Below are positions 37,726 through 58,797 of a DNA stretch of 64,000 bases, in pieces. The notes below the pieces were generated by a model. It was not told the DNA's origin. It saw only the letters and a program-made list of their open reading frames with translations, and did no database searches. The position numbers and the translations under genes were made by a program. Origin of the DNA: Aromatoleum toluvorans (GTDB taxonomy: Bacteria; Pseudomonadota; Gammaproteobacteria; Burkholderiales; Rhodocyclaceae); NCBI RefSeq assembly GCF_012910905.1, contig NZ_WTVN01000010.1, positions 1 through 64,000 on the forward strand, given 5' to 3'. Within the stretch, counting starts at the first letter, position 1. Every line of letters begins with the position of its first letter.

Positions 37726-37758
37726 AGCAGACAGGTCGGCCATCGTCATTTCCGCAAA

Positions 37759-38571: not shown

Positions 38572-38611
38572 CGTGATGTTCCCATGCTCGCTTGCGGGTC
38601 TGGGTTCCCGG

Positions 38612-41892: not shown

Positions 41893-41893
41893 G

Positions 41894-43210: not shown

Positions 43211-43258
43211 TCCGCCTTCCACCCCACGCCACACCATAACGAGATGGAGAACGAGGAG

Positions 43259-44762: not shown

Positions 44763-44884
44763 CACCCGCTCCGTTCCTTTCCGAACCGCTCGCCGCGGAA
44801 GCCCCGCGGCGCACAACCCGGAATGTGATTGCTGTTCAAATCATCATCGCAAGTTTAAGCCCTGTATGGATAAATTTCTTTTTC

Positions 44885-44934: not shown

Positions 44935-45009
44935 AAATTCCACAACAACGCTGCGGACGGCATCAAGGCAACGCGACGCCGGACCGGGTGAAAACCGGAG
45001 GAGACAAGA

Positions 45010-47274
45010 TGGCCCCGACCCCAACAGTCTGGCCGTCGCCCGTGCGCCGCCCACTGCGGCCGTGCGGCGATGCCCGCATCCCCTGCGCCGGACAGCCGCG
45101 CCATGGCTGAGCGCTCGTTCGCGAAGGAAGTCGAGCAGCTCCGGCTGCCGGCCGGCAGCGAGTTCCGCGGCGAAGGCATCCTGGCCGTCACCAAGGCCTT
45201 GCTGCAGTCCGGTGTCGGCTACGTCGCCGGCTACCAGGGCTCGCCGATCTCGCACCTGATGGACGTGCTCGCCGACGCGAAGGAGATCCTCGACGAGCTC
45301 GGCGTGCATTTCGAGGCGAGCGCCTCCGAGGCCACCGCAGCAGCGACGCTCGCCGCGTCGGTGATGTACCCGATCCGCGGCGCGGTCACGTGGAAGTCCA
45401 CGGTCGGCACCAACGTCGCATCCGACGCGCTCGCCAACCTCGCGTCGGGCGGCGTCACCGGCGGCGCGCTGGTGATCATCGGCGAGGATTACGGCGAAGG
45501 CTCGTCGATCATGCAGGAGCGCTCGCACGCCTTCGCGATGAAGTCGCAGATGTGGCTGCTCGATCCGCGCCCGAATCTCGAATCCATCGTCAAGGCGGTC
45601 GAGGACGGCTTCGAGCTGTCGGAGGCGAGCAACACGCCGGTGATGCTCGAGATGCGCATCCGCTCGTGCCACGTGCATGGCCGCTTCACGACCCGCGAGA
45701 ACCGCCGGCCCGCGTTCAGCCTCGCCGACGCGCTCGAAAACCCGCGCCGCGACACCGGCCGCATCGTGCTGCCGCCCGCCTCCTTCGCGCACGAGCACGA
45801 GAAGGTCCGCGACCGCTGGCCCGCCGCCGTGAAGTTCATCCGCGAGCGGAAACTCAACGAGTTCTTCGACGGCGACGACGCCCACGCCGACCTCGGTCTG
45901 ATCCTGCAGGGCGGCCTCTACAACGGCGTCATCCGCGCGCTGCAGCTGCTCGGCCTCGCCGACGCGTTCGGCAACAGCCGCATCCCGCTGTACGTGATGA
46001 ACGTCACCTACCCCGTCATCGACGACGAGGTGCTCGCCTTCTGTGCGACCAAGCGCGCGGTGCTGCTGCTCGAAGAAGGCCAGCCCGACTACATCGAGCA
46101 GAACCTCAACACCATCCTGCGCCGCTCCGGCGTGACGACGGCGCTGTGCGGCAAGGACGTGCTGCCGATGGCCGGCGAATACACGACGCAGGTCATGCGC
46201 GACGGCATCGAAGCCTTCCTTACGACCCACGCGCCGCGCGCACTCGAATCGTCCGCGGCGGTGCCGGCGCAGGCCCCCACCGCGGTGCCGATCACCTTCC
46301 ACCCGAAAGTCCGCGATCTCGCCGCCGTCGTGCCGCCCCGGCCCGCGGGCTTCTGCACCGGCTGCCCCGAGCGGCCGATCTTCGCGGCAATGAAGCTCGC
46401 GCAGGCCGAGCTCGGCGAGCATCACATCTCGTGCGACATCGGCTGCCACCTGTTCTCCATCCTGCCGCCGTTCAACCTCGGCGCGACGACGATGGGCTAC
46501 GGGCTCGGCGCGGCGTCGAGCTCGGCGTTCAACGTGAAGTCCGGCAAGCGTTCGATCTCGGTGATGGGCGACGGCGGCTTCTGGCACAACGGCCTGACGA
46601 GCGGCATCGCCAACGCGGTGTTCAACAAGAACGACGGGGTCATCGTCATCGTCGACAACTTCTACTCGTCGGCCACCGGCGGGCAGGACATCCCGTCGTC
46701 GCGCGCGGACAACCCCAACCGCGCGACCAAGCATCCGATCGAGGCGGCGATCCGCGGCGCCGGCGTCCAGTGGGTGCGCACCATCGACCGCACCTACGAC
46801 GTCGCCCGCGTGCGCGACACGCTCGAAGAGGCGCTGACGACGAGCACCGACGGCCCGAAGGTCATCATCGCCCAGTCCGAATGCATGCTGAACAAGCAGC
46901 GGCGCGTGAAACCGCTGTTCAACAAGGCGGTGAAGGCCGGCGAGCGGGTCGTCAAGGAGCGCTTCGGCGTCGATCCGGACGTGTGCAGCGGCGATCATGC
47001 GTGCATCCGCCTGTCGGGCTGCCCCTCGCTGTCGGTGAAGGACAGCGGCGACCCCCTGAAGGAGGACCCGGTGGCGCACGTCGACAACAGCTGTGTCGGC
47101 TGCGGCAACTGCGGCGAAGTCGCCGAGGCCGCGGTGCTGTGCCCGTCCTTCTATCGCGCCGACATCATCCACAACCCGACCGCGGCCGACCGCATCAAGG
47201 CGCGCGTGCGCGGCGCCGTCATCGGCTGGCTGCAGCGACGCCGCGCGGCGCGGCTCGCGCGCCACGCGCTGTGA
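45010..47274 (+). CDS. Indolepyruvate/2-oxoacid:ferredoxin oxidoreductase, alpha (TPP) subunit, IorA-like
   Basis: This 754-residue IorA-type subunit has an N-terminal pyruvate-oxidoreductase-like domain (GYQGSPISHLMDV, VGTNVASDALANL), the segment FCTGCPERPIF, and a TPP domain with MGDGGFWHNG ... NFYSSATGGQ. It ends with a ferredoxin-like tail (CVGCGNCGEVAEAAVLCPSF) and upstream CSGDHACIRLSGC. It oxidatively decarboxylates an aryl 2-oxoacid to an acyl-CoA, reducing ferredoxin. In this cluster, isatinate (2-aminophenylglyoxylate) giving 2-aminobenzoyl-CoA is an attractive substrate (inference); arylpyruvates are the alternative. GGAGGAG supports ATG 45010; ATG 45103 would give the usual N-terminus. 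Confidence 0.83.
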   Translation, partial: WPRPQQSGRRPCAAHCGRAAMPASPAPDSRAMAERSFAKEVEQLRLPAGSEFRGEGILAVTKALLQSGVGYVAGYQGSPISHLMDVLADAKEILDELGVHFEASASEATAAATLAASVMYPIRGAVTWKSTVGTNVASDALANLASGGVTGGALVIIGEDYGEGSSIMQERSHAFAMKSQMWLLDPRPNLESIVKAVEDGFELSEASNTPVMLEMRIRSCHVHGRFTTRENRRPAFSLADALENPRRDTGRIVLPPASFAHEHEKVRDRWPAAVKFIRERKLNEFFDGDDAHADLGLILQGGLYNGVIRALQLLGLADAFGNSRIPLYVMNVTYPVIDDEVLAFCATKRAVLLLEEGQPDYIEQNLNTILRRSGVTTALCGKDVLPMAGEYTTQVMRDGIEAFLTTHAPRALESSAAVPAQAPTAVPITFHPKVRDLAAVVPPRPAGFCTGCPERPIFAAMKLAQAELGEHHISCDIGCHLFSILPPFNLGATTMGYGLGAASSSAFNVKSGKRSISVMGDGGFWHNGLTSGIANAVFNKNDGVIVIVDNFYSSATGGQDIPSSRADNPNRATKHPIEAAIRGAGVQWVRTIDRTYDVARVRDTLEEALTTSTDGPKVIIAQSECMLNKQRRVKPLFNKAVKAGERVVKERFGVDPDVCSGDHACIRLSGCPSLSVKDSGDPLKEDPVAHVDNSCVGCGNCGEVAEAAVLCPSFYRADIIHNPTAADRIKARVRGAVIGWLQRRRAARLARHAL

Positions 47275-47282
47275 GGATTCCG

Positions 47283-48881
47283 ATGAGCGAAGTGACCCTT
47301 CATTCCGGCACGCCGATCAAGATCGCGATCCTCGCGATGGGCGGCCAGGGCGGCGGCGTGCTCGCCGACTGGATCGTCGAGATGGCCGAAGCGGGCGGCT
47401 GGTGGGCGCAGACGACCTCCGTGCCGGGGGTGGCTCAGCGCACCGGCGCGACGATCTACTACGTCGAGCTGTTGCCCGAGGCCGCCGCGCATGCTGCCGG
47501 ACGCGCGCCGGTGCTCGCGATGATGCCCACGCCGGGCGACGTCGATGTCGTCGTCGCCGCCGAGCTGATGGAAGCCGGCCGCGCGATGCAGCGCGGCCTC
47601 GTGAGCCCGGACCGCACGACGCTGATCGCCTCGACGCACCGCAGCTACGCAGTCGCCGAGAAGGCCGCGCCCGGCAATGGCATCGCCGATCCCAACAAGG
47701 TCCTCGATGCCGGGCGCGAAGCGGCGAAGCGCCTGCTGTGCTTCGACCTGCAGCAGATGGCCGAGCGCGCCGGCAGCGTGATCTCGGCGAGCCTGTTCGG
47801 TGCGATCGCCGGGGCCGGCGTGCTGCCCTTCGCCCGCGACGCGTTCGAAGCGACGATCCGCCACGGCGGCGTCGGTGTCGAGGCGAGCCTGAAGGCGTTC
47901 GCGCTCGGCTTCGATGCCGCGGCCGGAGCCCCTGCCGCCCCCGCGCCCATAGACACCTCGCGCCCGCTGCCCGATGTGCCCGCGAGCGCGGGGCATCCGC
48001 GCGTGCAGGCGCTGCTCGACACGGTGAAGCAGTTCCCGCAGGCCGCGCAGCCGCTGGTCGTCGCGGGCGTGCGCCGGCTGATCGACTACCAGGACGTCGC
48101 CTACGCGGAGGACTATCTGCGCACGCTGCAGGGCTTCCGCACGCTCGACGCGCAGGCCGGCGGCGACGCGCGCGACTGGGCGCTGACGCAGGCGGCGGCC
48201 CGTTACGTCGCAGTCGCCATGAGCTACGACGACGTGATCCGCGTCGCCGACCTGAAAACGCGCGGCAGCCGGTTCGAGCGCGTGCGCAGCGAAGTCGGCG
48301 CGAAGAGCGACCAGCTTGTCTACACGACCGAGTTCATGCAGCCGCGCCTGGAAGAGATCTGCGGCACGCTGCCGCTGCGGCTCGGTCGTTGGCTGGAGAA
48401 CTCGAAGACGCTCGGCGGCTTCATCCGCCGCCGGGTCGAGCATGGCCGGCGCGTGAAGACCGGCACGCTGACGTGGTTCGTCGGGCTGTACTGCCTCGCC
48501 GGCCTGCGCCGCTTTCGCCGCGGCACGCTGCGCCATGCGATCGAGACGGCGCACATCGACGATTGGCTCGCCCGCACGACCCGCATCGTCGCGACCGACT
48601 ATGCCCTCGCCGTCGAGGTGCTCGCCTGCCGGCGGCTCATCAAGGGCTACAGCGGCACGCACGACCGCGGCGACCGCCGCTTCGCGCGGCTGATGCAAGC
48701 TGCCGACGAACTCGCCGGCCAGCCCGACGCCGCCGCAACGCTGAAATCCTTGCGCGAAGCCGCGCTCGCCGACGAGGAAGGCAAGGCGCTCGACGCACAG
48801 CTCGCTCAGCTGTTGAGCGCGCGCGCCGCGCCTCCCGCAGGCGGCCGTGCACGAATCGACACCCCCCGCGTCGCGGCCTGA
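47283..48881 (+). CDS. 2-oxoacid:ferredoxin oxidoreductase, beta (gamma-type) subunit with long C-terminal domain, IorB-like
   Basis: This 532-residue protein has residues ~10-200 as the CoA/oxoacid-binding domain of IorB (IAILAMGGQGGGVLADWI, TSVPGVAQRTGATIYY). A helical C-terminal domain of about 300 residues follows (YRY-like region, FIRRRVEHGRRVKTGTLTWFVGLY, LIKGYSGTHDRGDRRF), which is found on long bacterial IorB proteins. It pairs with the TPP subunit encoded nine bases upstream. GAGGA precedes ATG 47283. The long form is typical for aromatic-degrading Betaproteobacteria, where it forms phenylacetyl- or indoleacetyl-CoA from arylpyruvates. Confidence 0.85.
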   Translation: MSEVTLHSGTPIKIAILAMGGQGGGVLADWIVEMAEAGGWWAQTTSVPGVAQRTGATIYYVELLPEAAAHAAGRAPVLAMMPTPGDVDVVVAAELMEAGRAMQRGLVSPDRTTLIASTHRSYAVAEKAAPGNGIADPNKVLDAGREAAKRLLCFDLQQMAERAGSVISASLFGAIAGAGVLPFARDAFEATIRHGGVGVEASLKAFALGFDAAAGAPAAPAPIDTSRPLPDVPASAGHPRVQALLDTVKQFPQAAQPLVVAGVRRLIDYQDVAYAEDYLRTLQGFRTLDAQAGGDARDWALTQAAARYVAVAMSYDDVIRVADLKTRGSRFERVRSEVGAKSDQLVYTTEFMQPRLEEICGTLPLRLGRWLENSKTLGGFIRRRVEHGRRVKTGTLTWFVGLYCLAGLRRFRRGTLRHAIETAHIDDWLARTTRIVATDYALAVEVLACRRLIKGYSGTHDRGDRRFARLMQAADELAGQPDAAATLKSLREAALADEEGKALDAQLAQLLSARAAPPAGGRARIDTPRVAA

Positions 48882-48908
48882 GCCGTGACCCTATCGAGGA
48901 GCGTTCCC

Positions 48909-49898
48909 ATGCGCACATTCGAACTCGAAATCCGTTCCGTCACAGCGGAAACCCCGCTGATCCTCGCGTTCGAACTCGCCGCACCCGATGGCGCCGTCCT
49001 GCCCGGCTTCAGCGCCGGCGCGCATCTGCAGATCGCGGTGCCGGGGCTTGCCGAGCCGCGCTGCTATTCGCTGATCGAGCTTGCGCCCGCCGCCGCGGCA
49101 TTCGAGCGCCCGACCCGCTACCGGCTCGGCGTGCGCATCGAGGACGGCAGCCGCGGCGGCTCACGCTTCATGCACGCGCTGAAAGCGGGCGACCGCGTCA
49201 CCGTGACGGGCCCGAAGAACGAGTTTGCACTGCACGAACCGGGGCCGGACGAAGCACCGGTCGTGCTGCTCGCCGGGGGAATCGGCATCACGCCCGTCGC
49301 CTCGATGGCGGCGGCGCTGAAGGCAGCCGGGCGCCCCTTCGTGCTGCACTACAGCGGCCGCAGCCGCGACCAACTCGCCTTCGTCGACGAACTCGCGACG
49401 CTGGCCGGCGACGCGCTCGTGTTGCACGCCGACGACGACCCCATGACCCGGCTCGACATCGCCGCGCTACTCGATTCGGTGAAACCCTCGCGCAGCGAAG
49501 CCCCGCACCTCTATGTGTGCGGCCCCAAAGGGATGATCGACGCGACCATAAACGGCGCGAAGGCGCGCGGCTGGCCCACCGGCCACGTGCATTTCGAACT
49601 CTTCGCCGCGGCGGCGCCCGTCGCGGGCGACCAGCCCTTCGAGCTCGAACTGCGCCAGTCCGGCCGCGTGCTCACGGTCCCCGCCGACAAGACCATCGTC
49701 GAGGTCATGGAGGCCGCCGGCTGCGACCCGATGTTCGACTGCAAGCGCGGCGAATGCGGCGTGTGCACCGCGACCGTCCTCGAAGGCGTGCCGGACCACC
49801 GCGACTACTTCCTGACGGACTCGGAGAAGGCCGAAGGAAAGCTGATCCAGATCTGCATCTCGCGCGCAAAGAGCGCGCGGCTGGTGCTCGATCTCTGA
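48909..49898 (+). CDS. Rieske oxygenase reductase component (FNR domain + [2Fe-2S] ferredoxin)
   Basis: This 329-residue protein of the phthalate-dioxygenase-reductase/VanB type has a flavin-binding domain (RCYSLIELAP-like region with CYSLI), a pyridine nucleotide domain (VLLAGGIGITPVASM, HLYVCGPKGM), then a C-terminal plant-type ferredoxin (FDCKRGECGVCTATVLEG plus a distal Cys in QICIS). It passes electrons from NAD(P)H to the oxygenase encoded next. GAGGAG supports ATG 48909. By order and family it corresponds to the reductase of iad-type auxin loci (iadC as I recall), but this name is not certain. Confidence 0.88.
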   Translation: MRTFELEIRSVTAETPLILAFELAAPDGAVLPGFSAGAHLQIAVPGLAEPRCYSLIELAPAAAAFERPTRYRLGVRIEDGSRGGSRFMHALKAGDRVTVTGPKNEFALHEPGPDEAPVVLLAGGIGITPVASMAAALKAAGRPFVLHYSGRSRDQLAFVDELATLAGDALVLHADDDPMTRLDIAALLDSVKPSRSEAPHLYVCGPKGMIDATINGAKARGWPTGHVHFELFAAAAPVAGDQPFELELRQSGRVLTVPADKTIVEVMEAAGCDPMFDCKRGECGVCTATVLEGVPDHRDYFLTDSEKAEGKLIQICISRAKSARLVLDL

Positions 49899-49933
49899 AA
49901 CACCACAGACGAGAAAACTCGCAGGAGGAGACG

Positions 49934-51247
49934 ATGGAACGTTACACGGGCAACCCGGACGCCGTGCGCGCACTGGTGCGCGACCTCGAAGTGCACAAGG
50001 ACACCTACATCGACGAGGAAGTCTTCGCGCTCGAAATGGAGCACCTCTTCGCCAACACCTGGGTCTATGTCGGCCACGCCAGCCAGGTGCCGAACAAGGG
50101 GGACTTCTACACGACGACCGTCGGCACCGAGCCGGTCGTGATGGTGCGACACACCGACGACTCGATCCGCGTGCTGTACAACCGCTGCCCGCACAAGGGC
50201 GTCAAGGTCGCCGGCGAGACCTGCGGCAACACCGGAAAATTCTTCCGCTGCCCCTACCACGCCTGGACCTTCAAGACCGACGGCAGCCTCCTCGCCGTGC
50301 CGCTGAAGAAAGGCTACGAGAACACCGGCTTCGAGTCCTGCGAGGCCAAGCATGGCATGGCCCCGGTCCAGAACGTGAAGGTCTACCGCGACTTCGTGTT
50401 CTGCCGACTCAACCCGAACGGCATTTCGTTCGAGGACTACTTCGGCGAATCGCTGTCGACCATCGACAACATGGTCGACCGCTCGCCCGAAGGCCGCCTC
50501 GAAGTCGCCGGCGGCGTGCTGCGCTACATGCACAACTGCAACTGGAAGATGCTCGTCGACAACCAGACCGACACCTGCCACCCGATGGTCGCGCACGAAT
50601 CCTCCGCCGGGACCGCGGTGAAGGTGTGGCAGGAAGCGCCCGAAGGCACGCCCAAACCGATGGCGGTCGAACTCTTCGCGCCCTTCGTCTCCTCGTACGA
50701 GTTCTTCGAGAACATGGGCATCCGCGTATGGGACAACGGCCACGGCCACACCGGCGTCGCCGACTCGATCCATGCCGCCTATTCGCCCGCCCCCGGCTAC
50801 TGGGAACAGATGGTCGCCGCCTACGGCGAGGAGCGCGCCAAACACATCCTTGGCGACACCCGGCACAACACCGTCTATTTCCCGAACATCATGGTCAAGG
50901 GCCCGATCCAGACGCTGCGCCTGTTCAAGCCGATCGCCGCGAACAAGACCCTCGTCGAGTCCTGGACCTTCCGCCTAGTCGGCGCGCCCGACCTGCTGCT
51001 CGAACGCACGCTGATGTACAACCGGCTGATCAACGCCCCGACCTCCGTCGTCGGCCACGACGACCTCGAGATGTACGAACGCGCGCAGGAAGCCCTGCAA
51101 TCGCGCGGCCGCGACTGGATCAACGTCGCAAGGCTGTTCGACCCCGCCGAGAAGGAACAGAAGAACGTCGCGACGAACGGCACGAACGAGTGGCAGATGC
51201 GCAACCAGTTCCGCGCCTGGGCGAAGTTCATGACGGAAAGCATGTAG
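49934..51247 (+). CDS. Rieske non-heme iron oxygenase, alpha subunit
   Basis: This 437-residue alpha subunit has the Rieske motif CPHKG ... CPYHAW (residues ~88-110) binding the [2Fe-2S] cluster. The mononuclear iron motif lies in NWKMLVDNQTDTCHPMVAHES (His, His and the bridging Asp, about 200-215), and a distal Asp/Glu-rich region closes the site. It adds one or two oxygen atoms to an aromatic ring. In this cluster the likely substrate is the indole ring of indoleacetate, giving a hydroxylated oxindole-acetate, as for IadD/IacC-type enzymes (inference). AGGAGGAG precedes ATG 49934. The small subunit follows after a 198-bp gap with repeat-like sequence. Confidence 0.87.
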   Translation: MERYTGNPDAVRALVRDLEVHKDTYIDEEVFALEMEHLFANTWVYVGHASQVPNKGDFYTTTVGTEPVVMVRHTDDSIRVLYNRCPHKGVKVAGETCGNTGKFFRCPYHAWTFKTDGSLLAVPLKKGYENTGFESCEAKHGMAPVQNVKVYRDFVFCRLNPNGISFEDYFGESLSTIDNMVDRSPEGRLEVAGGVLRYMHNCNWKMLVDNQTDTCHPMVAHESSAGTAVKVWQEAPEGTPKPMAVELFAPFVSSYEFFENMGIRVWDNGHGHTGVADSIHAAYSPAPGYWEQMVAAYGEERAKHILGDTRHNTVYFPNIMVKGPIQTLRLFKPIAANKTLVESWTFRLVGAPDLLLERTLMYNRLINAPTSVVGHDDLEMYERAQEALQSRGRDWINVARLFDPAEKEQKNVATNGTNEWQMRNQFRAWAKFMTESM

Positions 51248-51445
51248 AGCCACGGCAAATAACCCCGAAAGCCAGGGACGGTCGGGGTGTTGGCGGAGCG
51301 GGCGAGGACTGTCTGAGCGAGGGCCGCGGGAGCGGCCCGACGCGAGTTCCGCAGCCCGCAGAGCAAATACCCCGGCAGGCCCGATTAGCGGCACCTCCCG
51401 CCCTCGCCCGAAGAAAACAGCGCAAACAGAACGAGGAACAAACAA

Positions 51446-51931
51446 ATGTCCGCCCTCGACATCACCCACAAGACCCTCACCGACTTCATCTACGCCGAAG
51501 CCCGTCTCCTCGACGAGCAGCGCTTCGAAGACTGGCTCAACCTGTTCACAGAAGACGGCCACTACTGGATGCCGCTCGCGCACGGCCAGACCGACCCCCG
51601 CCTGCACACCTCGCTGATGTACGAAGACAAGCTGCTGCTGCGAGTACGCGTCGAACGTCTCGCCGGCCAGCGCACCTTCTCGCAACAGCCGAAAAGTCGC
51701 TGCCACCACCTGCTGCAGGCGCCCACCGTCGAATCGCCCGCCCCCGATGGCGAGCACGTCGTGCGCACCGCCTTCCACTACGTCGAGACGCGCCAGGACC
51801 AACAGACCCTCTTCGCCGGCTGGACCACGCACCACGTCGTCGAAGACGCAGGCGCGCTGAAGATCCGCCTCAAGCGCGTCGACCTCGTCAATTGCGACGC
51901 CGCGTTCGGCAACATCCAGCTCTTCATGTGA
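51446..51931 (+). CDS. Rieske oxygenase beta subunit
   Basis: This 161-residue protein has the SnoaL-like cone fold of ring-hydroxylating oxygenase small subunits: FIYAEARLLDEQRFEDWLNLFTEDGHYWMPL, SLMYEDKLLLRVRVERL and a C-terminal VDLVNCDAAFGNIQLFM. It has a structural role in an alpha3beta3 oxygenase. GAGGAA precedes ATG 51446. It is separated from the alpha gene by a 198-bp gap, and the CoA ligase starts 19 bp after the stop. Confidence 0.88.
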   Translation: MSALDITHKTLTDFIYAEARLLDEQRFEDWLNLFTEDGHYWMPLAHGQTDPRLHTSLMYEDKLLLRVRVERLAGQRTFSQQPKSRCHHLLQAPTVESPAPDGEHVVRTAFHYVETRQDQQTLFAGWTTHHVVEDAGALKIRLKRVDLVNCDAAFGNIQLFM

Positions 51932-51950
51932 GCCCCTCGTGAGCCCCTTC

Positions 51951-53585
51951 ATGACCGCCACCGTCTTCGACGCCTTCACCGCGGCCGCCGGGCAATGGGG
52001 CGAACGCCCCTTTCTGTGCATCCTGCCCGACACCGCCGCGGCCTACGGCATCGCACCCAGCGAACTCGCCTATCGCGACGCCGCACAGCGCATCGAGGCG
52101 CTGCGCCAGGCCTACGCCGCCGCCGGCTACGGCCCCGGCCACCGCGTCGGCCTGCTGCTCGAAAACCGCCCGGCCTTCTTCCTGCACTGGTTCGCACTCA
52201 ACGCACTGGGCGTCTCCGTCGTCCCGATCAACGCCGACCTCCGCGCCGCCGAACTCGAATACCTCATCGGCCACTCCGAAATCGCCCTCGCCGTCGCACT
52301 GCCGCAGCGCCACGCCGATCTCGCCGCAGCAGCCGAACGCGCCGGCCGCCCGCTGCACATCATCAGCGACGGCGACACGCCGCCGGCCGCCGCCTTCCCC
52401 GCGCCGCTCGCGGGCACGGTGCCGGGCGAGCTCACCGAATGCGCCCTGCTCTACACCTCCGGCACCACCGGCCGGCCCAAGGGCTGCATGCTGCCGAACC
52501 GCTACTTCCTGCACGCCGGCCGCTGGTACGCCAACATCGGCGGCCTCGCGCGCCTCATGCCTGGCGAGGAGCGCATGATCACGCCGCTGCCGCTGGTGCA
52601 TATGAACGCGATGGCGTATTCGACGATGGCCATGCTCATGACCGGCGGCTGCCTCGTCCCCCTCGACCGCTTCCACCCCAAGCGCTGGTGGGCCAACGTC
52701 CGCGAGGCGCGCGCCACCGTCGTGCATTACCTCGGCGTCATGCCGGCGATGCTCATGAAGGCCGAGGCCTCGCCCGAAGACCGCGCCCATTCCGTGCGCT
52801 TCGGCTTCGGCGCCGGCGTCGATCGCACCCTGCACGCCGCGTTCGAAACGCGCTTCGGCTTCCCGCTGCTCGAAGCCTGGGCGATGACCGAGACCGGCGC
52901 CGGGGCCGTCGTCATCGCGAACCATGAGCCGCGCAAGGTCGGCACGAGCTGCTTCGGCAAGGAGGCGTCCGACATCGAAGTCCGCATCGCGACCGAAGAC
53001 GGGCGCGACGCTGCCACCGACGAACCCGGCGAGCTGCTCGTGCGCCACGCCGGCGACGATCCGCGCTACGGCTTCCTCGCCGGCTACCTGAAGGACGAGG
53101 CCGCGACCGCGGAGGCCTGGGCCGGCGGCTGGTTCCATACCGGCGATGTCGTGCGCCGCGACGTCGACGGCCACCTGCATTTCGTCGACCGCAAGAAGAA
53201 CGTCATCCGCCGCAGCGGCGAGAACATCGCCGCGGTCGAGGTCGAGAGCGTGCTGCAGCAGCATCCGCTGGTGAAGGCGGTCGCCGTCGCCGCGGTGCCC
53301 GATCCCGTGCGCGGCGACGAAGTCATGGCCTGCATCGTGCCCCAGCAGCCGCTCGCCGACCGCCGCGCGATGGAGGCCGCCGCCGAGGAACTGGTGCGCT
53401 GGACGCTCGGCGAACTGGCGTACTACAAGGCGCCGGGCCATATCGCCTTCGTCGACGGCCTGCCGCTGACGGTCACGAACAAGATCCAGCGCGGCGAACT
53501 CAAGGCGCTGGCGCCCACGCTCGTCGGCGCGCCCGAGTGCGTCGATACCTGCGCGCTGAAGAAGCGCCAGGAGACGGCCACATGA
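51951..53585 (+). CDS. Acyl-CoA synthetase of the aerobic cluster
   Basis: This 544-residue AMP-forming ligase has LLYTSGTTGRPKGC (about residue 165), AWAMTETGAG (about 310), WFHTGDVVRRDVDGHL, RKKNVIRRSGENI and the C-terminal TVTNKIQRGELK with the catalytic Lys. It should make a CoA thioester of the oxygenase product so that the thiolase-fold protein encoded next can cleave it (inference). ATG 51951 is used; GTG 51939 is in frame with an equally weak ribosome site. It ends ATGA into the next gene. Confidence 0.83.
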   Translation: MTATVFDAFTAAAGQWGERPFLCILPDTAAAYGIAPSELAYRDAAQRIEALRQAYAAAGYGPGHRVGLLLENRPAFFLHWFALNALGVSVVPINADLRAAELEYLIGHSEIALAVALPQRHADLAAAAERAGRPLHIISDGDTPPAAAFPAPLAGTVPGELTECALLYTSGTTGRPKGCMLPNRYFLHAGRWYANIGGLARLMPGEERMITPLPLVHMNAMAYSTMAMLMTGGCLVPLDRFHPKRWWANVREARATVVHYLGVMPAMLMKAEASPEDRAHSVRFGFGAGVDRTLHAAFETRFGFPLLEAWAMTETGAGAVVIANHEPRKVGTSCFGKEASDIEVRIATEDGRDAATDEPGELLVRHAGDDPRYGFLAGYLKDEAATAEAWAGGWFHTGDVVRRDVDGHLHFVDRKKNVIRRSGENIAAVEVESVLQQHPLVKAVAVAAVPDPVRGDEVMACIVPQQPLADRRAMEAAAEELVRWTLGELAYYKAPGHIAFVDGLPLTVTNKIQRGELKALAPTLVGAPECVDTCALKKRQETAT

Positions 53586-54754
53586 GGAGCCGCCAGAGCT
53601 ACGACGGCGTCGCCGCCGCGGTGCCCTTCACCGTGCCCTACGCGCGCTACTCGACGCACGCCGCGCACTGGTGGCTCGGCCGCGCCCTCGCCGCGCTGAT
53701 CCGCGAGTCGGGCATCGCCAAGGCCGACATCGACGGCGTCTGTGTCTCGAGCTTCACGCTCGGCCCCGATACCGCGGTCGGACTGATGCAGCACCTCGGC
53801 ATGAGCCCGCGCTGGCTCGACCACATCCCGATGGGGGGCGCGTCCGGCGTCGTCGCGCTGCGGCGCGCCGCGCGCGCGGTGCAGGCCGGCGACGCGGAAG
53901 TCATCGCGTGCATCGCCGGCGACACCAACCACGTCGACTCCTTCCGCCACACCGTCAGCCAGTTCTCGCGCTTCGCCCAGGACGCCGTCTATCCCTACGG
54001 CGCCGGCGGGCCGAACGCGAGCTTCGCGCTGCTCACCGACCACTATATGCGGCAGTACGGCGCCACCCGCGAGGACTTCGGCAAGCTCTGCGTCGCCCAG
54101 CGCGACAACGCGCTGAGGAACCCGCACGCGCTGATGAAGAAGCCCCTGACGCTCGCGCAATACCTCGACGCACGGCCGATCACCGACCCCATCCATCTCT
54201 TCGACTGCGTGATGCCCTGCGCCGGCGCCGAAGGCTTCCTCGTCATGACGGAGGAACGGGCGCGCGCCCTGAAGCTGCCGCGCGTGCGCATCCGCTCCAC
54301 GATCGAGCGCCACAACGCCTACCCCGACGACCCGATCCAGTTCCGCGGCGGCTGGGCGATGGACCGCGATGCGCTGTACGAGCACGCCGGCCTCTCGCCC
54401 GCCGACGTCGACTTCGTCGAGACCTACGACGACTACCCGGTGATCAACATGCTGCAGTTCGAGGACCTCGGCTTCTGCGCGAAGGGCGAAGCGCCCGCCT
54501 TCGTGCGCGAACACGACTTCACGATCGACGGCTCCTTCCCGTTCAACACCTCCGGCGGGCAGCTCTCGGTCGGCCAGGCCGGCGCGGCGGGAGGCTACCT
54601 CGGGCTCGTGCAGGCGCTGCGCCAGCTCACGAACGTCGCTGGCGCCATGCAGGTCGCCGACGCACGCATCGGCCTCGTGTCCGGCTTCGGCATGATCAAC
54701 TACGACCGCGGCCTGTGCTCCGGCGCGGCGCTCCTCGAACGGGGGACGGCATGA
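53582..54754 (+). CDS. Thiolase-fold protein lacking the catalytic Cys, probable Ltp2-like retro-aldolase
   Basis: This 390-residue SCP2-thiolase-fold protein lacks the nucleophile: the usual Cys loop reads MGGASGVVALRRA (85-97). The GHP histidine motif reads VGQAGAAGG, and the C-terminal Cys-His region reads GFGMINYDRGLCSG. Thiolysis is therefore unlikely. DUF35-partnered proteins of this kind include the steroid retro-aldolase Ltp2, which cleaves a tertiary beta-hydroxyacyl-CoA; here a DUF35 domain is encoded next (ATGA coupling). A fitting reaction is cleavage of 3-hydroxy-oxindole-3-acetyl-CoA to isatin plus acetyl-CoA (inference). AGGAG precedes ATG 53582. Confidence 0.75.
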   Translation: MRSRQSYDGVAAAVPFTVPYARYSTHAAHWWLGRALAALIRESGIAKADIDGVCVSSFTLGPDTAVGLMQHLGMSPRWLDHIPMGGASGVVALRRAARAVQAGDAEVIACIAGDTNHVDSFRHTVSQFSRFAQDAVYPYGAGGPNASFALLTDHYMRQYGATREDFGKLCVAQRDNALRNPHALMKKPLTLAQYLDARPITDPIHLFDCVMPCAGAEGFLVMTEERARALKLPRVRIRSTIERHNAYPDDPIQFRGGWAMDRDALYEHAGLSPADVDFVETYDDYPVINMLQFEDLGFCAKGEAPAFVREHDFTIDGSFPFNTSGGQLSVGQAGAAGGYLGLVQALRQLTNVAGAMQVADARIGLVSGFGMINYDRGLCSGAALLERGTA

Positions 54755-55995
54755 CCGACGCCACGCCCAAGCCGAAACGCAAAAACCCCGTCGCGCGCAC
54801 GCGCCTGCCGACGCTGCCGCCCGCATCGCGCAGCCGCGCGGCGCTCGGCCTCGCCCGTGCCGCCGCCGAAGGGCGCTTCGAGATGCAGGCCTGCGCCGAC
54901 TGCGGCGCGGTGCAATACCCGCCGCGCGAAGTCTGCGGCAGCTGCCTGTCCGAGCGGCTCGACTGGCGCGAGGTCGCCAACGGCGGCGCACTGATCGCGA
55001 CGACGACCTTGCGCCACAGCAACGATCCGTATTTCCGCGAGCGCCTGCCGTGGCGCGTCGGCACCGTGAAGATGGACGCCGGCCCCTCGGTGGTCGCGCA
55101 CGTGCATGAAGACTGCCACGAAGCCGGCCGCGTGCGCCTCGCCCTGAAACTCGACCGTAGCGGCCAGGCCGTGCTGCACGCGCTGCCCGCGGAGGACACC
55201 CCGAACATGAACGATTCGCCCCAACTGCGCGAGACGCATTGCGACCCGAAGCACCGCCGCGTGCTCGTCACCGACGGACGCTCCACGCTCGGCCGCGCGA
55301 TGGTCAAGGCCTTGCTCGACGCCGGCGCGTCGACCGTCTTCATCGGCGATCCGGCGACGTGGAAGGCCGATGCCGGTTTCGACGCCTTTGTCGCCTCCGA
55401 TCCGCGCATCGAGCCGGTCGCGCTCGACGTCACCGACACCGACTCGGTCGACCGGCTCGCCGCGTCGATCGGCGCCAAGGTCGAGATCCTCATCAACACC
55501 GCCGACCACCTGCGCGACGGCGGGGTCATGAACGCCCGCGACGTCGGGCTCGCGCGCGACGCCTTCGACGTCAATGTGCTCGGCCTGATGCGGCTCGCGC
55601 AGGCCTTCGGCCCGACGATGTGCTTCCGCGCGGCCGACGGCACGCACGGCGCGGTCGCGTGGGTGAACCTGCTGTCAATCCATGCGCTCGCGGCCCTGCC
55701 CGCGCGCGGCGCGTGGTCGGCGTCGAAGGCCGCCGCCCTGTCCGCCGCCCTGACCCTACGTGCCGAGTTCGGCGGCGCCGGCATACGGGTCATGAACGTC
55801 TTCCCCGGCCCGATCGACGACGAATGGGAACAGCTGACCCCGCCCCCGAAGCTCGCGCCCTCCGCGGTCGCCGCCGCCGTCGTCCGCGGGCTGCGCGACG
55901 GCGTCGAGGATCTTTACGTCGGAGACGTCGCCGAGGAGCTGCGGGCGCGCCTGCGCGACAACCAAAAGGCCGTCGAACGCGAACTCGGCGGCTGA
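54751..55995 (+). CDS. DUF35/OB-fold zinc-ribbon protein fused to a degenerate SDR domain
   Basis: This 414-residue protein has residues ~45-145 as a DUF35 domain: zinc ribbon Cys48/51/62/65 (CADCG ... CGSC) and an OB-fold. Such domains partner thiolase-fold enzymes like the one encoded just upstream. Residues ~168-400 are an SDR fold with altered motifs: TDGRSTLG (174-181) for the NAD site, NTAD (249-252) for NNAG, Ser309 present, but Trp322 in place of the catalytic Tyr (WSASK). A true Tyr-dependent oxidoreductase is unlikely, so the SDR part may bind nucleotide or serve as a scaffold. ATGA overlaps the upstream gene. I know of no characterised protein with this fusion. Confidence 0.8.
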   Translation: MTDATPKPKRKNPVARTRLPTLPPASRSRAALGLARAAAEGRFEMQACADCGAVQYPPREVCGSCLSERLDWREVANGGALIATTTLRHSNDPYFRERLPWRVGTVKMDAGPSVVAHVHEDCHEAGRVRLALKLDRSGQAVLHALPAEDTPNMNDSPQLRETHCDPKHRRVLVTDGRSTLGRAMVKALLDAGASTVFIGDPATWKADAGFDAFVASDPRIEPVALDVTDTDSVDRLAASIGAKVEILINTADHLRDGGVMNARDVGLARDAFDVNVLGLMRLAQAFGPTMCFRAADGTHGAVAWVNLLSIHALAALPARGAWSASKAAALSAALTLRAEFGGAGIRVMNVFPGPIDDEWEQLTPPPKLAPSAVAAAVVRGLRDGVEDLYVGDVAEELRARLRDNQKAVERELGG

Positions 55996-56055
55996 CTGCG
56001 CCGCAACACACGACAGACCCGTAAGGGCACCCCACCCACCGAAGGAGACCCCCAC

Positions 56056-56841
56056 GTGAGCACCGCCATCCTCGCGCAGTTCATGGCCGAGCTGCTGTCC
56101 GGCCGCATCCGACTCGTCGACCTCACGCAAACCCTGACCCCGGAATTCCCGACCATCGTCCTGCCGCCGGAACTCGGCCAGGCCTGGCCCTTCCGCATCG
56201 AGGAGATCTCGCGCTACGACGAGCGCGGCCCGGCCTGGTACTGGAACAACTTCTCCTGTTCGGAACATACCGGCACGCACTTCGATGCCCCGGTGCATTG
56301 GGTCACCGGCAAGGACCAGCCGAACAACGCCGTCGACTCGATCCCGGTCGACAACTTCATCGCCGCCGCCTGCGTCATCGACGTCTCCGCCGAGGCTGCA
56401 AAGAACCCCGATTTCCTGCTCACTATCGACTTCGTCGAGAAGTGGGAAGAAAAGCACGGCCGCATCCCCGAGCGCTCGTGGGTGCTGCTGCGCACCGACT
56501 GGTCCAAGCGCAGCGGCGCGAAGGAATACCTGAACATGGCCGAGGACGGCGCGCATTCGCCGGGCCCCGACGCCGAGGTCGTGCCCTGGCTGATCCGCGA
56601 ACGCCACGTGCACGGCTTCGGCACCGAATCGATCGGCACCGACGCCGGCCAGGCGCATCACCTCAACCCGCCCTACCCGTGCCACTACTTCATGCACGGC
56701 AACAACCGCTACGGCCTGCAGTGCCTGACGAACCTCGACCAGCTGCCGCCCCAGGGCGCGCTGATCCTCGCCGCGCCGCTCAAGATCCGTAACGGCTCCG
56801 GCAGCCCGCTGCGCGTGCTCGCGCTGACCCCGCACATCTGA
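56056..56841 (+). CDS. Cyclase-family metal hydrolase, isatin-hydrolase-like
   Basis: This 261-residue protein of the kynurenine formamidase/cyclase superfamily has the metal motif HTGTHFDAPVHW: His71, His75, Asp77 and His81, matching the HxxxHxDxxxH spacing of isatin hydrolase. Other family pieces are WVLLRTDWSKR and HGFGTESIGTDAG. Isatin hydrolase opens isatin to isatinate with Mn2+. Kynurenine formamidase or a cyclic imide hydrolase are alternatives; the oxindole context favours isatin. Start is GTG 56056 with AAGGAG seven to eight bases upstream. It lies 60 bp after the DUF35-SDR gene. Confidence 0.8.
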   Translation: MSTAILAQFMAELLSGRIRLVDLTQTLTPEFPTIVLPPELGQAWPFRIEEISRYDERGPAWYWNNFSCSEHTGTHFDAPVHWVTGKDQPNNAVDSIPVDNFIAAACVIDVSAEAAKNPDFLLTIDFVEKWEEKHGRIPERSWVLLRTDWSKRSGAKEYLNMAEDGAHSPGPDAEVVPWLIRERHVHGFGTESIGTDAGQAHHLNPPYPCHYFMHGNNRYGLQCLTNLDQLPPQGALILAAPLKIRNGSGSPLRVLALTPHI

Positions 56842-56851
56842 GGACATGACG

Positions 56852-57580
56852 ATGAGCGAAAGACGTGTCGCGATCGTCACCGGCGGCAGCGCCGGCATCG
56901 GCGCCGATATCTGCCGGCGCATGCTGGAGGACGGCTACGAGGTGGTTTCCGTCGCGCGCCGCGCCGCCGACTGGACACACCCGCGGCTGACGAACGTCCA
57001 GGTCGACCTCCTCGACGCCGCCGCGACGGAAACCGCCGCGCAGGAGATCGCGCGCGACTTCCCGGTGAGCCACCTCATCCACAACGCCGGCGTGATCTGG
57101 CCGAAACTGCTGCCCGACGTCACGCAGGACGAGCTGCACGGCCTCACGCAGATCCACCTCGGCGCGGCGATCAGCCTGATGCAGGCGGCGCTGCCCGGCA
57201 TGCGGGCGCGCGGCTTCGGCCGCGTCGTGCTGATGTCCTCGCGCGGCGCGCTGGGGCTCGCCACGCGCACCGCCTATTCGGCGACCAAGGCCGGCATGAT
57301 CGGCATGGCGCGCACCTGGGCGCTCGAACTCGCGCCGCACGGCATCACCGTGAACGTCGTCGCCCCCGGCCCCATCGCTACCGACATGTTCCACGACGTC
57401 GTCCCCGCCGGCAGCGAGCGCGAGCAGAAACTCGCCGCGAACATCCCGGTCGGGCGCATCGGCCGCCCCGACGACGTCACCCGCGCGGTGATGTTCTTCG
57501 CCGACCCCGCGAACAGCTTCGTGACCGGCCAGACCCTGTACGTCTGCGGCGGCGCGAGCGTCGGCACGCTGACGATCTGA
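56852..57580 (+). CDS. Short-chain dehydrogenase/reductase
   Basis: This 242-residue classical SDR has TGGSAGIG, HNAG (variant of NNAG), Ser in MSSRGA, and the intact YSATK with catalytic Tyr and Lys, followed by APGPIATDMF. It likely oxidises or reduces an alcohol/ketone in the aerobic pathway, for example dioxindole-type side products to isatin (inference). ATG 56852 fits AGGA seven bases upstream; ATG 56846 is possible. It lies ten bases after the cyclase stop. Confidence 0.85.
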   Translation: MSERRVAIVTGGSAGIGADICRRMLEDGYEVVSVARRAADWTHPRLTNVQVDLLDAAATETAAQEIARDFPVSHLIHNAGVIWPKLLPDVTQDELHGLTQIHLGAAISLMQAALPGMRARGFGRVVLMSSRGALGLATRTAYSATKAGMIGMARTWALELAPHGITVNVVAPGPIATDMFHDVVPAGSEREQKLAANIPVGRIGRPDDVTRAVMFFADPANSFVTGQTLYVCGGASVGTLTI

Positions 57581-57645
57581 TGCCACCCCATAACCAGACG
57601 CCGTAAGGCGCCCCACCCCAAGCACCGCACCCACGGAGACGAAAG

Positions 57646-58797
57646 ATGAAGCTGAACAAAGCTGCCACCACCCTCGCGATCGCCCTGGCCGCCTTCGCGT
57701 CGCAGTCCGCCCTCGCCCAGGTGAAGATCGGCGTCGTGTCGTCGGCGACCGGCCCGACCGCGCTGGTCGGCATTCCGCAGAAGAATACGGTACCGCTGCT
57801 GCCGGCGAAGATCGGCGATCTCAGCGTCGAGTACGTCCCGCTCGACGACGCGAGCGATCCCACCGCCTCGGTCACCGCAGTGAAGAAGCTGATCTCGGAG
57901 CAGAACGTCGATGCGATCATCGGCCCCTCGGGCTCGCCCAACGCGATGGGCGTGATCCAGTTCGTCGCCGACGCAGGCGTGCCGCTGCTCGCGCCGGTCG
58001 GCACCGCCGCCGTCGTGACGCCGATGGACGACAAGAAGAAGTGGGTGTTCAAGACCACGCAGAACGACGACATCATCGCCACGGCGCTGGTCGAGCACAT
58101 GGTGAAAAGGGGCGTGAAGACGGTCGGCTTCATCGGCGTCGGCGACCCCTACGGCGAGAACTGGTACAAGGTGTTCTCGGCGCTCGCCGAAAAGAACGGC
58201 ATGAAGATCGTCGCCAACGAGCGCTACCAGCGCCAGGACGCATCGGTCACCGGCCAAAGCCTGAAGATCCTCGCCGCTAAACCCGACGCGGTGCTCGTCG
58301 CCGCCGCCGGCGGTCCCGCGGTGCTGCCGCAGACCACGCTCGTCGAGCAGGGCTACAAGGGCCAGATCTACCAGACCCACGGCGCCGCCCTGCCCGACTT
58401 CCTCAAGCTCGGTGGCAGGAAGGTCGAGGGCACGATCCTCGCCGCGAGCCTGATGCTGGTGCTGCCCGAGATCGCCGACAGCCATCCGTCGAAGAGGATC
58501 GCCGCCGACTACATCGCCGCCTACGAGAAGGCGCACGGCACGAAACCCGCGACCTTCGGCGCCAACGTCTTCGACGCCGGCCTGCTGCTGCAGCAGGCGA
58601 TCCCGGCCGCCGCGAAGGTCGCCAAACCCGGCACGAAGGAGTTCCGCGCCGCGCTGCGCGACAGCCTCGAGCAGACCCGCGAGCTCGTCGGCACCCAAGG
58701 CATCTACAACATGAGCGCCACCGACCACAGCGGCTTCGACGAGCGCGGCCGCGTGCTCATCGCCGTCAGGGACGGCGGCTGGACGCTGGCGAAGTAA
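57646..58797 (+). CDS. Periplasmic substrate-binding protein, paralogue of the iaa-operon protein
   Basis: This 383-residue LivK-like protein has a signal peptide ending near SALA-QV (residue 24). From there it is almost the same as the protein at 30059-31207 throughout, including KIGVVSSATGPTALVG and TRELVGTQGIYNMSATD; differences are scattered and conservative. The two copies close the anaerobic and the aerobic clusters and are each followed by a REP element. This fits one importer serving both pathways with separately regulated binding proteins. GGAGAC precedes ATG 57646. Confidence 0.85.
   Translation: MKLNKAATTLAIALAAFASQSALAQVKIGVVSSATGPTALVGIPQKNTVPLLPAKIGDLSVEYVPLDDASDPTASVTAVKKLISEQNVDAIIGPSGSPNAMGVIQFVADAGVPLLAPVGTAAVVTPMDDKKKWVFKTTQNDDIIATALVEHMVKRGVKTVGFIGVGDPYGENWYKVFSALAEKNGMKIVANERYQRQDASVTGQSLKILAAKPDAVLVAAAGGPAVLPQTTLVEQGYKGQIYQTHGAALPDFLKLGGRKVEGTILAASLMLVLPEIADSHPSKRIAADYIAAYEKAHGTKPATFGANVFDAGLLLQQAIPAAAKVAKPGTKEFRAALRDSLEQTRELVGTQGIYNMSATDHSGFDERGRVLIAVRDGGWTLAK

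What the first reader, a model, noticed from the sequence alone, without database searches (positions are those of the whole stretch)
45010..57580. Candidate aerobic indoleacetate route through isatin and isatinate to 2-aminobenzoyl-CoA
Seen: in one operon a Rieske oxygenase with reductase, a CoA ligase, a thiolase-fold protein without Cys, a DUF35 partner, an isatin-hydrolase-like cyclase with the HxxxHxDxxxH metal motif, an SDR, and an IorAB-type 2-oxoacid:ferredoxin oxidoreductase. Inference: oxygenation to 3-hydroxy-2-oxindole-3-acetate, CoA activation, retro-aldol cleavage to isatin plus acetyl-CoA, hydrolysis to isatinate (a 2-oxoacid), then CoA-dependent oxidative decarboxylation by IorAB to 2-aminobenzoyl-CoA, which the neighbouring abmA product takes up. 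Each gene gets a step. The IorAB and retro-aldolase steps are, to my knowledge, not established. Parts resemble the iad auxin loci of Variovorax and Achromobacter.
Basis: partly seen in the sequence, partly recalled or inferred. Interest (0 to 1): 0.9.

Follow-up and report, generated by a model that had tools for sequence, protein, structure and literature searches.

The report
Auxin breakdown operon ending in aminobenzoyl-CoA
This is a complete bacterial operon for destroying the plant hormone auxin, of a known type, and comparison of many genomes suggests that its two least understood genes turn the intermediate isatinate straight into the building block 2-aminobenzoyl-CoA, a step for which I found no published gene.

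Summary
Window 44265-58797 is a complete iad auxin-degradation locus (iadR, iadA-J, iadK2) beside an abm (2-aminobenzoyl-CoA) cluster. (1) IadAB (IorAB-type): of 199 Rhizobiaceae genomes 61 have isatin hydrolase and all 61 are among the 66 with IadA; 46 of the 61 lack the Rieske oxygenase IadD. All 66 have an AbmA homologue, against 50 of 133 others. Beyond the window, the same genome has a second isatin hydrolase followed by phenylglyoxylate dehydrogenase-type genes; isatinate is 2-aminophenylglyoxylate. Best reading: IadAB is a CoA-acylating isatinate oxidoreductase making 2-aminobenzoyl-CoA, bypassing anthranilate. (2) IadG has Gly for the thiolase nucleophile and the Tyr of steroid retro-aldolases; IadH is a DUF35-SDR fusion whose SDR triad is intact in 0 of 20 sequences. 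This contradicts the published ketothiolase and dehydrogenase labels. Nothing is shown biochemically. Published strains with iadC-K2 but without iadA still make anthranilate, and in the window's own order the IadA-isatin hydrolase link is looser (10 of 35).

The parts
44265..44816 (-). iadR: MarR-family regulator, divergent from iadA
   Evidence: MarR-type NCBIfam hits (HpaR 3.2e-17, below its cut-off); position as published for iadR/iadA; iadR homologues precede iadA in relatives such as L006 and L008-L013
45070..47274 (+). iadA: IorA-type subunit with a TPP domain and a cysteine-rich C-terminus (alternative start MAERSF at 45103); proposed isatinate oxidoreductase, CoA-acylating
   Evidence: TIGR03336 IOR_alpha 283.1 bits, below its cut-off of 650.9; PF02775; linkage to isatin hydrolase; no solved relative at E 0.001
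47283..48881 (+). iadB: IorB-type subunit, POR + DUF6537 (searches used 47268-48881)
   Evidence: NF006179 736.7 bits against cut-off 348; PF01558 and PF20169; start
48885..49898 (+). iadC: reductase component of the Rieske oxygenase
   Evidence: Fer2 and NAD_binding_1
49934..51247 (+). iadD: Rieske oxygenase alpha subunit; searches used 49970-51247, start set by eye from the translation
   Evidence: 9o71 E 3.9e-183, 7yls E 7.7e-181
51446..51931 (+). iadE: Rieske oxygenase beta subunit
   Evidence: PF00866 1.4e-29
51951..53585 (+). iadF: AMP-forming acyl-CoA ligase, proposed to activate dioxindole-3-acetate (searches used 51954-53585)
   Evidence: PF00501 1.6e-57
53582..54754 (+). iadG: thiolase-fold protein, proposed retro-aldolase releasing isatin and acetyl-CoA
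   Evidence: 9myr E 2.7e-48, 4u4e E 5.4e-44, 6ok1 E 4.6e-42; YDDY motif 21 of 21; Gly86 opposite the Cys of two thiolases
54751..55995 (+). iadH: DUF35 zinc-ribbon/OB domain fused to a degenerate SDR domain, proposed scaffold of IadG
   Evidence: PF12172, PF01796, PF00106; four Cys 20 of 20, intact S-Y-K triad 0 of 20
56056..56841 (+). iadI: isatin hydrolase
   Evidence: 5nmp E 8e-117, 5nnb E 2.9e-112; HTGTHFDAPVH; 11 of 11 site residues of LaIHA
56846..57580 (+). iadJ: SDR dehydrogenase with catalytic Tyr and Lys
   Evidence: PF13561 7e-45; Tyr 21 of 21, Lys 21 of 21, Ser 20 of 21
57646..58797 (+). iadK2: ABC-transporter solute-binding protein
   Evidence: weak NCBIfam hits to binding proteins; position as in the published iad locus
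38612..41182 (-). abmA (recalled name): 2-aminobenzoyl-CoA monooxygenase/reductase-type protein, likely start near 40936
   Evidence: NF006101 1391.3 bits against cut-off 1078; that model is named salicylyl-CoA 5-hydroxylase/oxidoreductase
37759..38571 (-). abm-cluster SDR
36647..37492 (-). abm-cluster enoyl-CoA hydratase
   Evidence: NF006107 472 bits against cut-off 330
35437..36642 (-). abm-cluster acyl-CoA dehydrogenase
   Evidence: acyl-CoA dehydrogenase models, all below cut-off
35049..35447 (-). abm-cluster Rid-family protein
   Evidence: TIGR00004 1.5e-14, below cut-off
32709..34337 (-). abmG-like (recalled name) benzoate-CoA-ligase-family protein, candidate 2-aminobenzoate-CoA ligase
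   Evidence: TIGR02262 357.4 bits, just below cut-off 375.25
41362..44230 (+). TRAP transporter (small permease by position and sequence, large permease, binding protein) between abm and iad
   Evidence: TIGR00786 and NF037995 over cut-off; ORFs

Best explanation
The operon is an iad-type aerobic auxin-degradation operon whose end product here is most likely 2-aminobenzoyl-CoA. Steps: IadCDE and IadJ oxidise indole-3-acetate to dioxindole-3-acetate (reported for Variovorax in a preprint). IadF makes its CoA ester (inferred). IadG, held by the DUF35 domain of IadH, cleaves the tertiary beta-hydroxyacyl-CoA by retro-aldol reaction to isatin and acetyl-CoA, with Tyr282 as base (inferred). IadI hydrolyses isatin to isatinate (known activity of the family). 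IadAB, a TPP-dependent 2-oxoacid oxidoreductase, converts isatinate (2-aminophenylglyoxylate) plus CoA to 2-aminobenzoyl-CoA, CO2 and two low-potential electrons (inferred). The neighbouring abm products take up 2-aminobenzoyl-CoA without passing through free anthranilate or paying for a ligase step. Free anthranilate would be an overflow product.
For: IadAB: (a) 199 Rhizobiaceae genomes: IadA and IadI both 61, IadA only 5, IadI only 0, neither 133 (Fisher 8e-46); without the 15 IadD genomes 46/5/0/133; all 66 IadA genomes have an AbmA homologue against 50 of 133 others (4e-21). (b) Of 68 IadA places (of 69; one fragment of G077 dropped) 54 have isatin hydrolase within 20 kb, 27 AbmA and 3 IadD. 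(c) Compact modules: L084 ECH-ACAD-iadI-iadA-iadB-Rid-MarR, about 10 bp between iadI and iadA; L138 abm genes plus iadI-iadA-iadB, with iadC-H not found in the 20 kb. (d) The same genome has a second isatin hydrolase followed by PadE, PadG, PadH, PadI genes, all over NCBIfam cut-offs for phenylglyoxylate dehydrogenase, and a separate Pad set on another contig without isatin hydrolase in the 19 kb read; the arrangement recurs in G341, another family. (e) Of 25 isatin-hydrolase loci in 18 of 86 relatives: 11 Pad-linked, 8 in iadG/H/J context, 3 directly before iadA, 3 neither. (f) 16 loci with IorA below 65% identity: 0 with isatin hydrolase, 0 with abmA; tree: 0 of 19 against 51 of 90. IadG/IadH. 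Published: C8H7NO3 (isatinate by formula) and C7H7NO accumulate strongly only in iadC-K2 overexpressors built in a deletion that includes iadA.
Against: No enzyme assay. iadC-K2 in the deletion strain restored anthranilate fully, so iadAB is not needed for it, and those strains are also overexpressors. In 270 genomes of the window's order, 25 of 35 IadA-type genomes lack IadI; at 65% identity or more 5 of 14 lack it; 2 of 12 IadI genomes (G341, G360) lack IadA, and G360 has no Pad match either. G489 and G490 have isatin hydrolase without Pad or IadA in the 20 kb read. Of 60 well-flanked IadA loci 16 show neither isatin hydrolase nor an abm gene. Some IadD-negative loci still carry iadF/G/H (L031, L055, L093 of G003), so lack of IadD does not mean lack of an indoleacetate-type route. 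Control (f) is not independent: except G389 those genomes have no IadI anywhere, and four loci at 65-72% (L158-L161) show none either. A ligase candidate lies in the neighbouring abm cluster. Fisher tests ignore relatedness. AbmA hits at 47-60% identity may include salicylyl-CoA hydroxylases.
Confidence: 0.72

Rival explanations
1. IadAB feeds the top of the pathway: it oxidises indolepyruvate from tryptophan to indoleacetyl-CoA, and the iad route itself ends in free anthranilate, which AbmG activates.
For: Family name indolepyruvate oxidoreductase; iadC-K2 suffices for anthranilate from auxin; a ligase candidate is in the abm cluster.
Against: 46 of 199 Rhizobiaceae genomes have IadA and IadI but no IadD, so IadA tracks isatin hydrolase more closely than the auxin oxygenase. 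Isatin hydrolase is also paired with phenylglyoxylate dehydrogenase-type genes. IadA is below the IOR_alpha equivalog cut-off (283.1 against 650.9 bits). iadDE degrade free auxin (PMC9613470, passages).
Confidence: 0.12
2. IadAB acts on isatinate but releases 2-aminobenzaldehyde or anthranilate rather than the CoA ester.
For: C7H7NO, the formula of 2-aminobenzaldehyde (my reading), and anthranilate are reported products.
Against: C7H7NO accumulates strongly in strains whose background lacks iadA. Pad-type enzymes form benzoyl-CoA (recalled). AbmA takes the CoA ester (recalled).
Confidence: 0.1
3. IadG is a true ketothiolase and IadH an alcohol dehydrogenase; the acetyl side chain leaves reductively as C8H7NO2 (the published assignment).
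For: Annotation; C8H7NO2 accumulates without iadI (PMC12633357).
Against: Gly86 stands opposite the Cys of two thiolases and Tyr282 opposite their His; YDDY is 21 of 21; the SDR triad of IadH is intact in 0 of 20. A tertiary alcohol cannot give a 3-ketoacyl-CoA (chemistry). Isatin could be reduced to dioxindole by other enzymes when IadI is missing (inference).
Confidence: 0.12

Closest known systems
iad auxin-degradation locus (Variovorax, Achromobacter, Bradyrhizobium)
   Same: Same genes, including the IorA/IorB homologues named iadA and iadB as markers of iad-type operons, and MarR control
   Different: Published routes end at anthranilate; the text I saw gives no role to iadAB. Here the locus adjoins an abm cluster and iadAB is proposed to make 2-aminobenzoyl-CoA
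Phenylglyoxylate dehydrogenase PadEFGHI (Aromatoleum/Azoarcus)
   Same: CoA-acylating oxidation of an arylglyoxylate (recalled); paralogues follow an isatin hydrolase in the same genome
   Different: Several smaller subunits, one of them an NAD(P)-type flavoprotein (PadH), against the two large subunits of IadAB
IorAB indolepyruvate:ferredoxin oxidoreductase
   Same: Domain families
   Different: IadA scores below the IOR_alpha equivalog cut-off; genomic partners include isatin hydrolase and abm genes
Steroid side-chain retro-aldolases CtSal and TcLtp2 with DUF35 partners
   Same: Thiolase fold, DUF35 partner, Tyr base, no nucleophilic Cys (passages of PMC12329534). 6ok1 is TcLtp2; 9myr I take to be CtSal from its YDCY motif
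   Different: Motif YDDY instead of YDCY or YDHF; DUF35 fused to a degenerate SDR; a small indolic substrate is proposed
Isatin hydrolases RsIHA and LaIHA (5nmp, 5nnb)
   Same: Full-length match; 11 of 11 listed metal-site and pocket residues of LaIHA (residues from passages of PMC6117287; check)
   Different: Nothing notable

Membership tests
iad locus | iadC-J, iadK2 and divergent iadR together, with iadAB | tested here: met
iad locus | degrades indole-3-acetate through isatin | not testable with these tools
   no expression or growth data for this organism
IorAB (IOR_alpha equivalog) | score above the curated cut-off of TIGR03336 | tested here: not met
   283.1 against 650.9 bits
IorB-type beta subunit (NF006179) | score above the curated cut-off | tested here: met
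   736.7 against 348 bits
Isatin hydrolase | HxxxHxDxxxH metal site plus pocket residues of LaIHA | tested here: met
   11 of 11 residues
Sal/Ltp2-type retro-aldolase | catalytic Tyr of the YD-x-[YF] motif; Gly at the thiolase nucleophile | tested here: met
   Tyr282 and Gly86 21 of 21 each; Gly86 opposite Cys of 7yvy and 7pxp
Sal/Ltp2-type retro-aldolase | general acid: Cys304 of CtSal or Tyr344 of TcLtp2 | tested here: not met
   Asp284 at the CtSal Cys304 position, 21 of 21; no Tyr at the TcLtp2 Tyr344 position in the alignment (by eye). Asp284 may serve as the acid (inference)
Classical SDR dehydrogenase (IadH) | Ser-Tyr-Lys triad | tested here: not met
   0 of 20
Phenylglyoxylate dehydrogenase (second isatin locus, outside the window) | PadE, PadG, PadH, PadI over NCBIfam cut-offs | tested here: met
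   311.9/300, 772.5/700, 567.3/475, 850/700 bits; PadF not tested
iac locus | IacA-type first enzyme, catechol end product | not tested
   an iac-type first enzyme was not searched for; the operon holds the Rieske IadDE instead

The most novel reading that the evidence does not exclude
Isatin hydrolase plus a CoA-acylating arylglyoxylate oxidoreductase is a widespread module that bacteria have built at least twice, with IadAB (IorAB-type) or with PadEFGHI-type enzymes. IadAB is a new enzyme, isatinate oxidoreductase (CoA-acylating), that sends isatin from auxin and other indoles to 2-aminobenzoyl-CoA without free anthranilate. IadG/IadH is a new small-molecule branch of the Sal/Ltp2 retro-aldolases.
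Probability: 0.68. Interest if true: 0.75.

Novelty: new variant of a known kind. Interest (0 to 1): 0.62.

Why it matters
The iad pathway is how Variovorax protects roots from excess auxin, and it is being engineered into other plant bacteria (PMC12633357). The papers I saw leave the isatinate-to-anthranilate step without a gene, give iadAB no function, and call IadG/IadH a thiolase and a dehydrogenase. If this reading holds, the pathway ends in an energised ring-cleavage substrate, anthranilate is overflow, cassettes lacking iadAB (such as iadC-K2) are incomplete, and many rhizobia without IadD still carry an isatin route. All of this can be tested with a few deletions and one enzyme assay.

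Tried and rejected
Rejected: IadG as ketothiolase and IadH as dehydrogenase (active-site residues); IadAB as a plain indolepyruvate enzyme (cut-off; profile). Considered and not used: absence of abmG as support. Of three abm clusters read in IadA-negative genomes two (L107, L108) carry abmG and the third (L109) shows none within 17 kb, while 11 of 60 well-flanked IadA loci carry it, so it does not discriminate. AbmA linkage in the window's order: 20 of 35 IadA genomes against 18 of 235 others. The IadA loci are the 80 best of 581 relatives; 60 of the 80 have at least 7 kb on both sides, and of these 37 hold isatin hydrolase, 23 IadD, 21 an abm gene, 23 isatin hydrolase without IadD, and 16 neither isatin hydrolase nor an abm gene. 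The control read 16 loci, covering 19 of the 31 places below 65% identity. The tree holds one genome twice (L030 and L092), loci of unequal length, and weak support at inner nodes (0.178 at one). L034 was not held for genome search. Structure prediction, fold search, promoter and RNA-family scans, and the padloc and phrogs libraries were not run. find_trnas found none in the window.
Full report
What is there. Window 44265-58797 holds a divergent MarR gene and eleven forward genes: IorA-type, IorB-type, reductase, Rieske alpha, Rieske beta, AMP-forming ligase, thiolase-fold protein, DUF35-SDR fusion, cyclase, SDR and a solute-binding protein. These are the genes of the published iad locus: Variovorax iadC-K2 in PMC12633357 (preprint; introduction, two results sections, discussion and main figure legends read; passages), and iadA/iadB as the IorA/IorB homologues and markers of iad-type operons in PMC9613470 (passages only). 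The Rieske subunit matches the solved IadDE entry 9o71. The cyclase matches solved isatin hydrolases and keeps 11 of 11 metal-site and pocket residues listed for LaIHA (PMC6117287, passages; check). On the minus strand, 31400-41182, lies an abm-type cluster: abmA, SDR, enoyl-CoA hydratase, acyl-CoA dehydrogenase, Rid protein and a benzoate-CoA-ligase-family protein. The names abmA and abmG are recalled; the library calls them salicylyl-CoA 5-hydroxylase/oxidoreductase and benzoate-CoA ligase family (the latter just below cut-off).

What is published and what is open. PMC12633357 assigns IadCDE as monooxygenase and IadJ as dehydrogenase giving dioxindole-3-acetate. [quoted passage not shown] Its main text has 0 occurrences of iadA and iadB; the structural paper PMC10374108 also has 0. 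[quoted passage not shown] So the fate of isatinate and the role of iadAB are open in what I could see. A search for isatinate dehydrogenase, decarboxylase or oxidoreductase and for 2-aminophenylglyoxylate found no paper. Searches joining isatin, 2-aminobenzoyl-CoA, phenylglyoxylate, oxindole and indole-3-acetic acid gave listings of which I opened some; none, by listing or passage, proposes this step. The library holds open-licence papers only; the Achromobacter paper that named the iad genes did not turn up.

The retro-aldol step. The best solved matches of IadG are 9myr (E 2.7e-48; its YDCY motif and numbering fit CtSal, which I take it to be), an uncharacterised thiolase 4u4e, and 6ok1, TcLtp2 (E 4.6e-42). 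In CtSal and TcLtp2 a Tyr of a YDCY or YDHF motif is the base, and CtSal has Gly where thiolases have the nucleophilic Cys (PMC12329534, passages). IadG has YDDY in 21 of 21 sequences (window plus 20 loci at 40% identity and 80% coverage or more). Gly86, also 21 of 21, stands opposite the Cys of two solved thiolases (7yvy, 7pxp), and Tyr282 stands opposite their His (by eye). The general acid of CtSal (Cys304) is Asp284 here, 21 of 21, and the second Tyr of TcLtp2 is not conserved, so the acid is uncertain. DUF35 domains are the partners of these aldolases; IadH carries one, with its four zinc-ribbon cysteines in 20 of 20, fused to an SDR domain that keeps Tyr in 3 of 20, Lys in 9 of 20 and the full Ser-Tyr-Lys triad in 0 of 20. 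IadJ keeps Tyr and Lys in 21 of 21. A tertiary alcohol beta to a thioester is what these aldolases cleave, and the cleavage needs no redox step. This argues against the published thiolase and dehydrogenase labels; it is an inference from residues.

The IadAB step: co-occurrence. In 199 genomes drawn evenly from the family of G003 (the Neorhizobium genome of L030, so Rhizobiaceae), IadA was found in 66, IadI in 61, AbmA homologues in 116 and IadD in 15, at the E-value limits. IadA and IadI: both 61, IadA only 5, IadI only 0, neither 133. IadA and AbmA: 66, 0, 50, 83. Without the 15 IadD genomes IadA and IadI are 46, 5, 0, 133. Of 68 IadA places (69; one fragment of G077 dropped), 54 have isatin hydrolase within 20 kb and 39 within 5 kb; 27 have AbmA and 3 have IadD within 20 kb. 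So IadA follows isatin hydrolase more closely than the auxin oxygenase. Some IadD-negative loci nevertheless carry iadF/G/H with isatin hydrolase (L031, L055, and L093 in G003), perhaps with another oxygenase. In 270 genomes of the window's own order the link is looser: 35 IadA, 12 IadI, 10 both; at 65% IadA identity or more 9 of 14 have IadI. Genomes are related, so the Fisher values overstate the independent evidence.

The IadAB step: anatomy. L084 carries, on one strand, enoyl-CoA hydratase, acyl-CoA dehydrogenase, iadI, iadA, iadB, Rid and MarR genes, with about 10 bp between iadI and iadA. L138, from the window's genus, has abm genes and an iadI-iadA-iadB unit; iadC-H were not found in the 20 kb read. 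L030 has iadAB divergent from abmA with isatin hydrolase 6.4 kb away. As a control, 16 loci with IorA below 65% identity (19 of the 31 such places) show isatin hydrolase in 0 and abmA in 0 within the 7-19 kb read. This control is not independent: except G389 those genomes have no IadI anywhere. Four loci at 65-72% (L158-L161), from genomes without IadI, show none either. In an IorA tree the outer group has 0 of 19 and the IadA group 51 of 90 with isatin hydrolase in the DNA held (lengths differ and one genome appears twice).

A second, unlike partner. Fifteen kilobases beyond the window on the same contig lies a second isatin hydrolase (58% identical to IadI), followed on the same strand by genes that pass the NCBIfam cut-offs for phenylglyoxylate dehydrogenase PadE, PadG, PadH and PadI, with FdhD, an Fe-S protein and a molybdopterin oxidoreductase upstream. 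The genome has another Pad set on contig C23 without isatin hydrolase in the 19 kb read; of 23 genomes searched only this one and G341, of another family, have PadG over its cut-off, and G341 has it beside an isatin hydrolase. Of 25 isatin-hydrolase loci in 18 of 86 relatives, 11 are next to PadE/PadG, 8 are in iadG/H/J context, 3 directly precede iadA, and 3 show neither within 1.5 kb. For two of those three 20 kb were read and no Pad or IadA gene was found. In Aromatoleum anaerobium (G007) isatin hydrolase lies about 12 kb from iadAB. Phenylglyoxylate dehydrogenase forms benzoyl-CoA from phenylglyoxylate (recalled). Isatinate is 2-aminophenylglyoxylate, so the expected product is 2-aminobenzoyl-CoA. 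Two different oxidoreductase types beside the same hydrolase point to that substrate.

Fit with published metabolites. C8H7NO3 (isatinate by formula) and C7H7NO (2-aminobenzaldehyde by formula, my reading) accumulated strongly only in strains overexpressing iadC-K2. Such strains were built in the HS33 deletion, which removes genes 77-53 and so iadA, gene 72; iadB is gene 71 by inference. This is what loss of an isatinate-consuming IadAB would do, but overexpression alone could also explain it. Anthranilate was fully restored with iadC-K2, so another route from isatinate exists in Variovorax.

Verdict. The finding is real and the locus type is known. I rate it a new variant of a known kind.

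Noticed in passing
window 13865-29910 (+): A second indoleacetate-type cluster: GntR regulator, thiolase, hydantoinase A and B, three-subunit molybdenum hydroxylase, class III CoA-transferase. It looks like the anaerobic iaa cluster of Aromatoleum (recalled), so aerobic and anaerobic auxin routes would flank one abm cluster.
   Followed up: partly
G000:C11 about 73800-85000 (L086, L087), outside the window: Molybdopterin oxidoreductase, Fe-S protein, FdhD, isatin hydrolase 2 and PadE/G/H/I-type genes together; a plausible anaerobic oxindole-isatin-aminobenzoyl-CoA route (inference). Isatin hydrolase of this type (83% identity or more) is next to PadE/G in 8 of 11 same-genus genomes that have it.
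   Followed up: partly
L018, L019, L022, L036, L041, L042, L047, L049 and similar rhizobial loci: Isatin hydrolase and iadAB accompanied by FAD-dependent oxidoreductases (cluster c4, judged by eye), a MarR-like protein and ABC-transporter genes; the source of isatin there is unknown.
   Followed up: no
L151, L152, L157: Tandem or neighbouring IorA paralogues, in L152 and L157 with a TRAP transporter gene, in other families of the window's order; substrate unknown.
   Followed up: no
L070, L072, L083: IadAB with TRAP transporter genes and a LysR-like gene but no isatin hydrolase in the DNA held; G008 (L070) and G009 (L083) have none in the genome. Perhaps import of an arylglyoxylate.
   Followed up: no
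window 60000-64000: G+C falls to 0.53 from 0.62-0.71 elsewhere; an ORF at 61261-62385 (-) looks foreign; possible island edge. An NnrS gene lies at 59036-60241.
   Followed up: no
literature, PMC8383072: The name iad is also used for a Pseudomonas cluster whose layout resembles iac clusters (passages), so the gene letters there do not match those used here.
   Followed up: no
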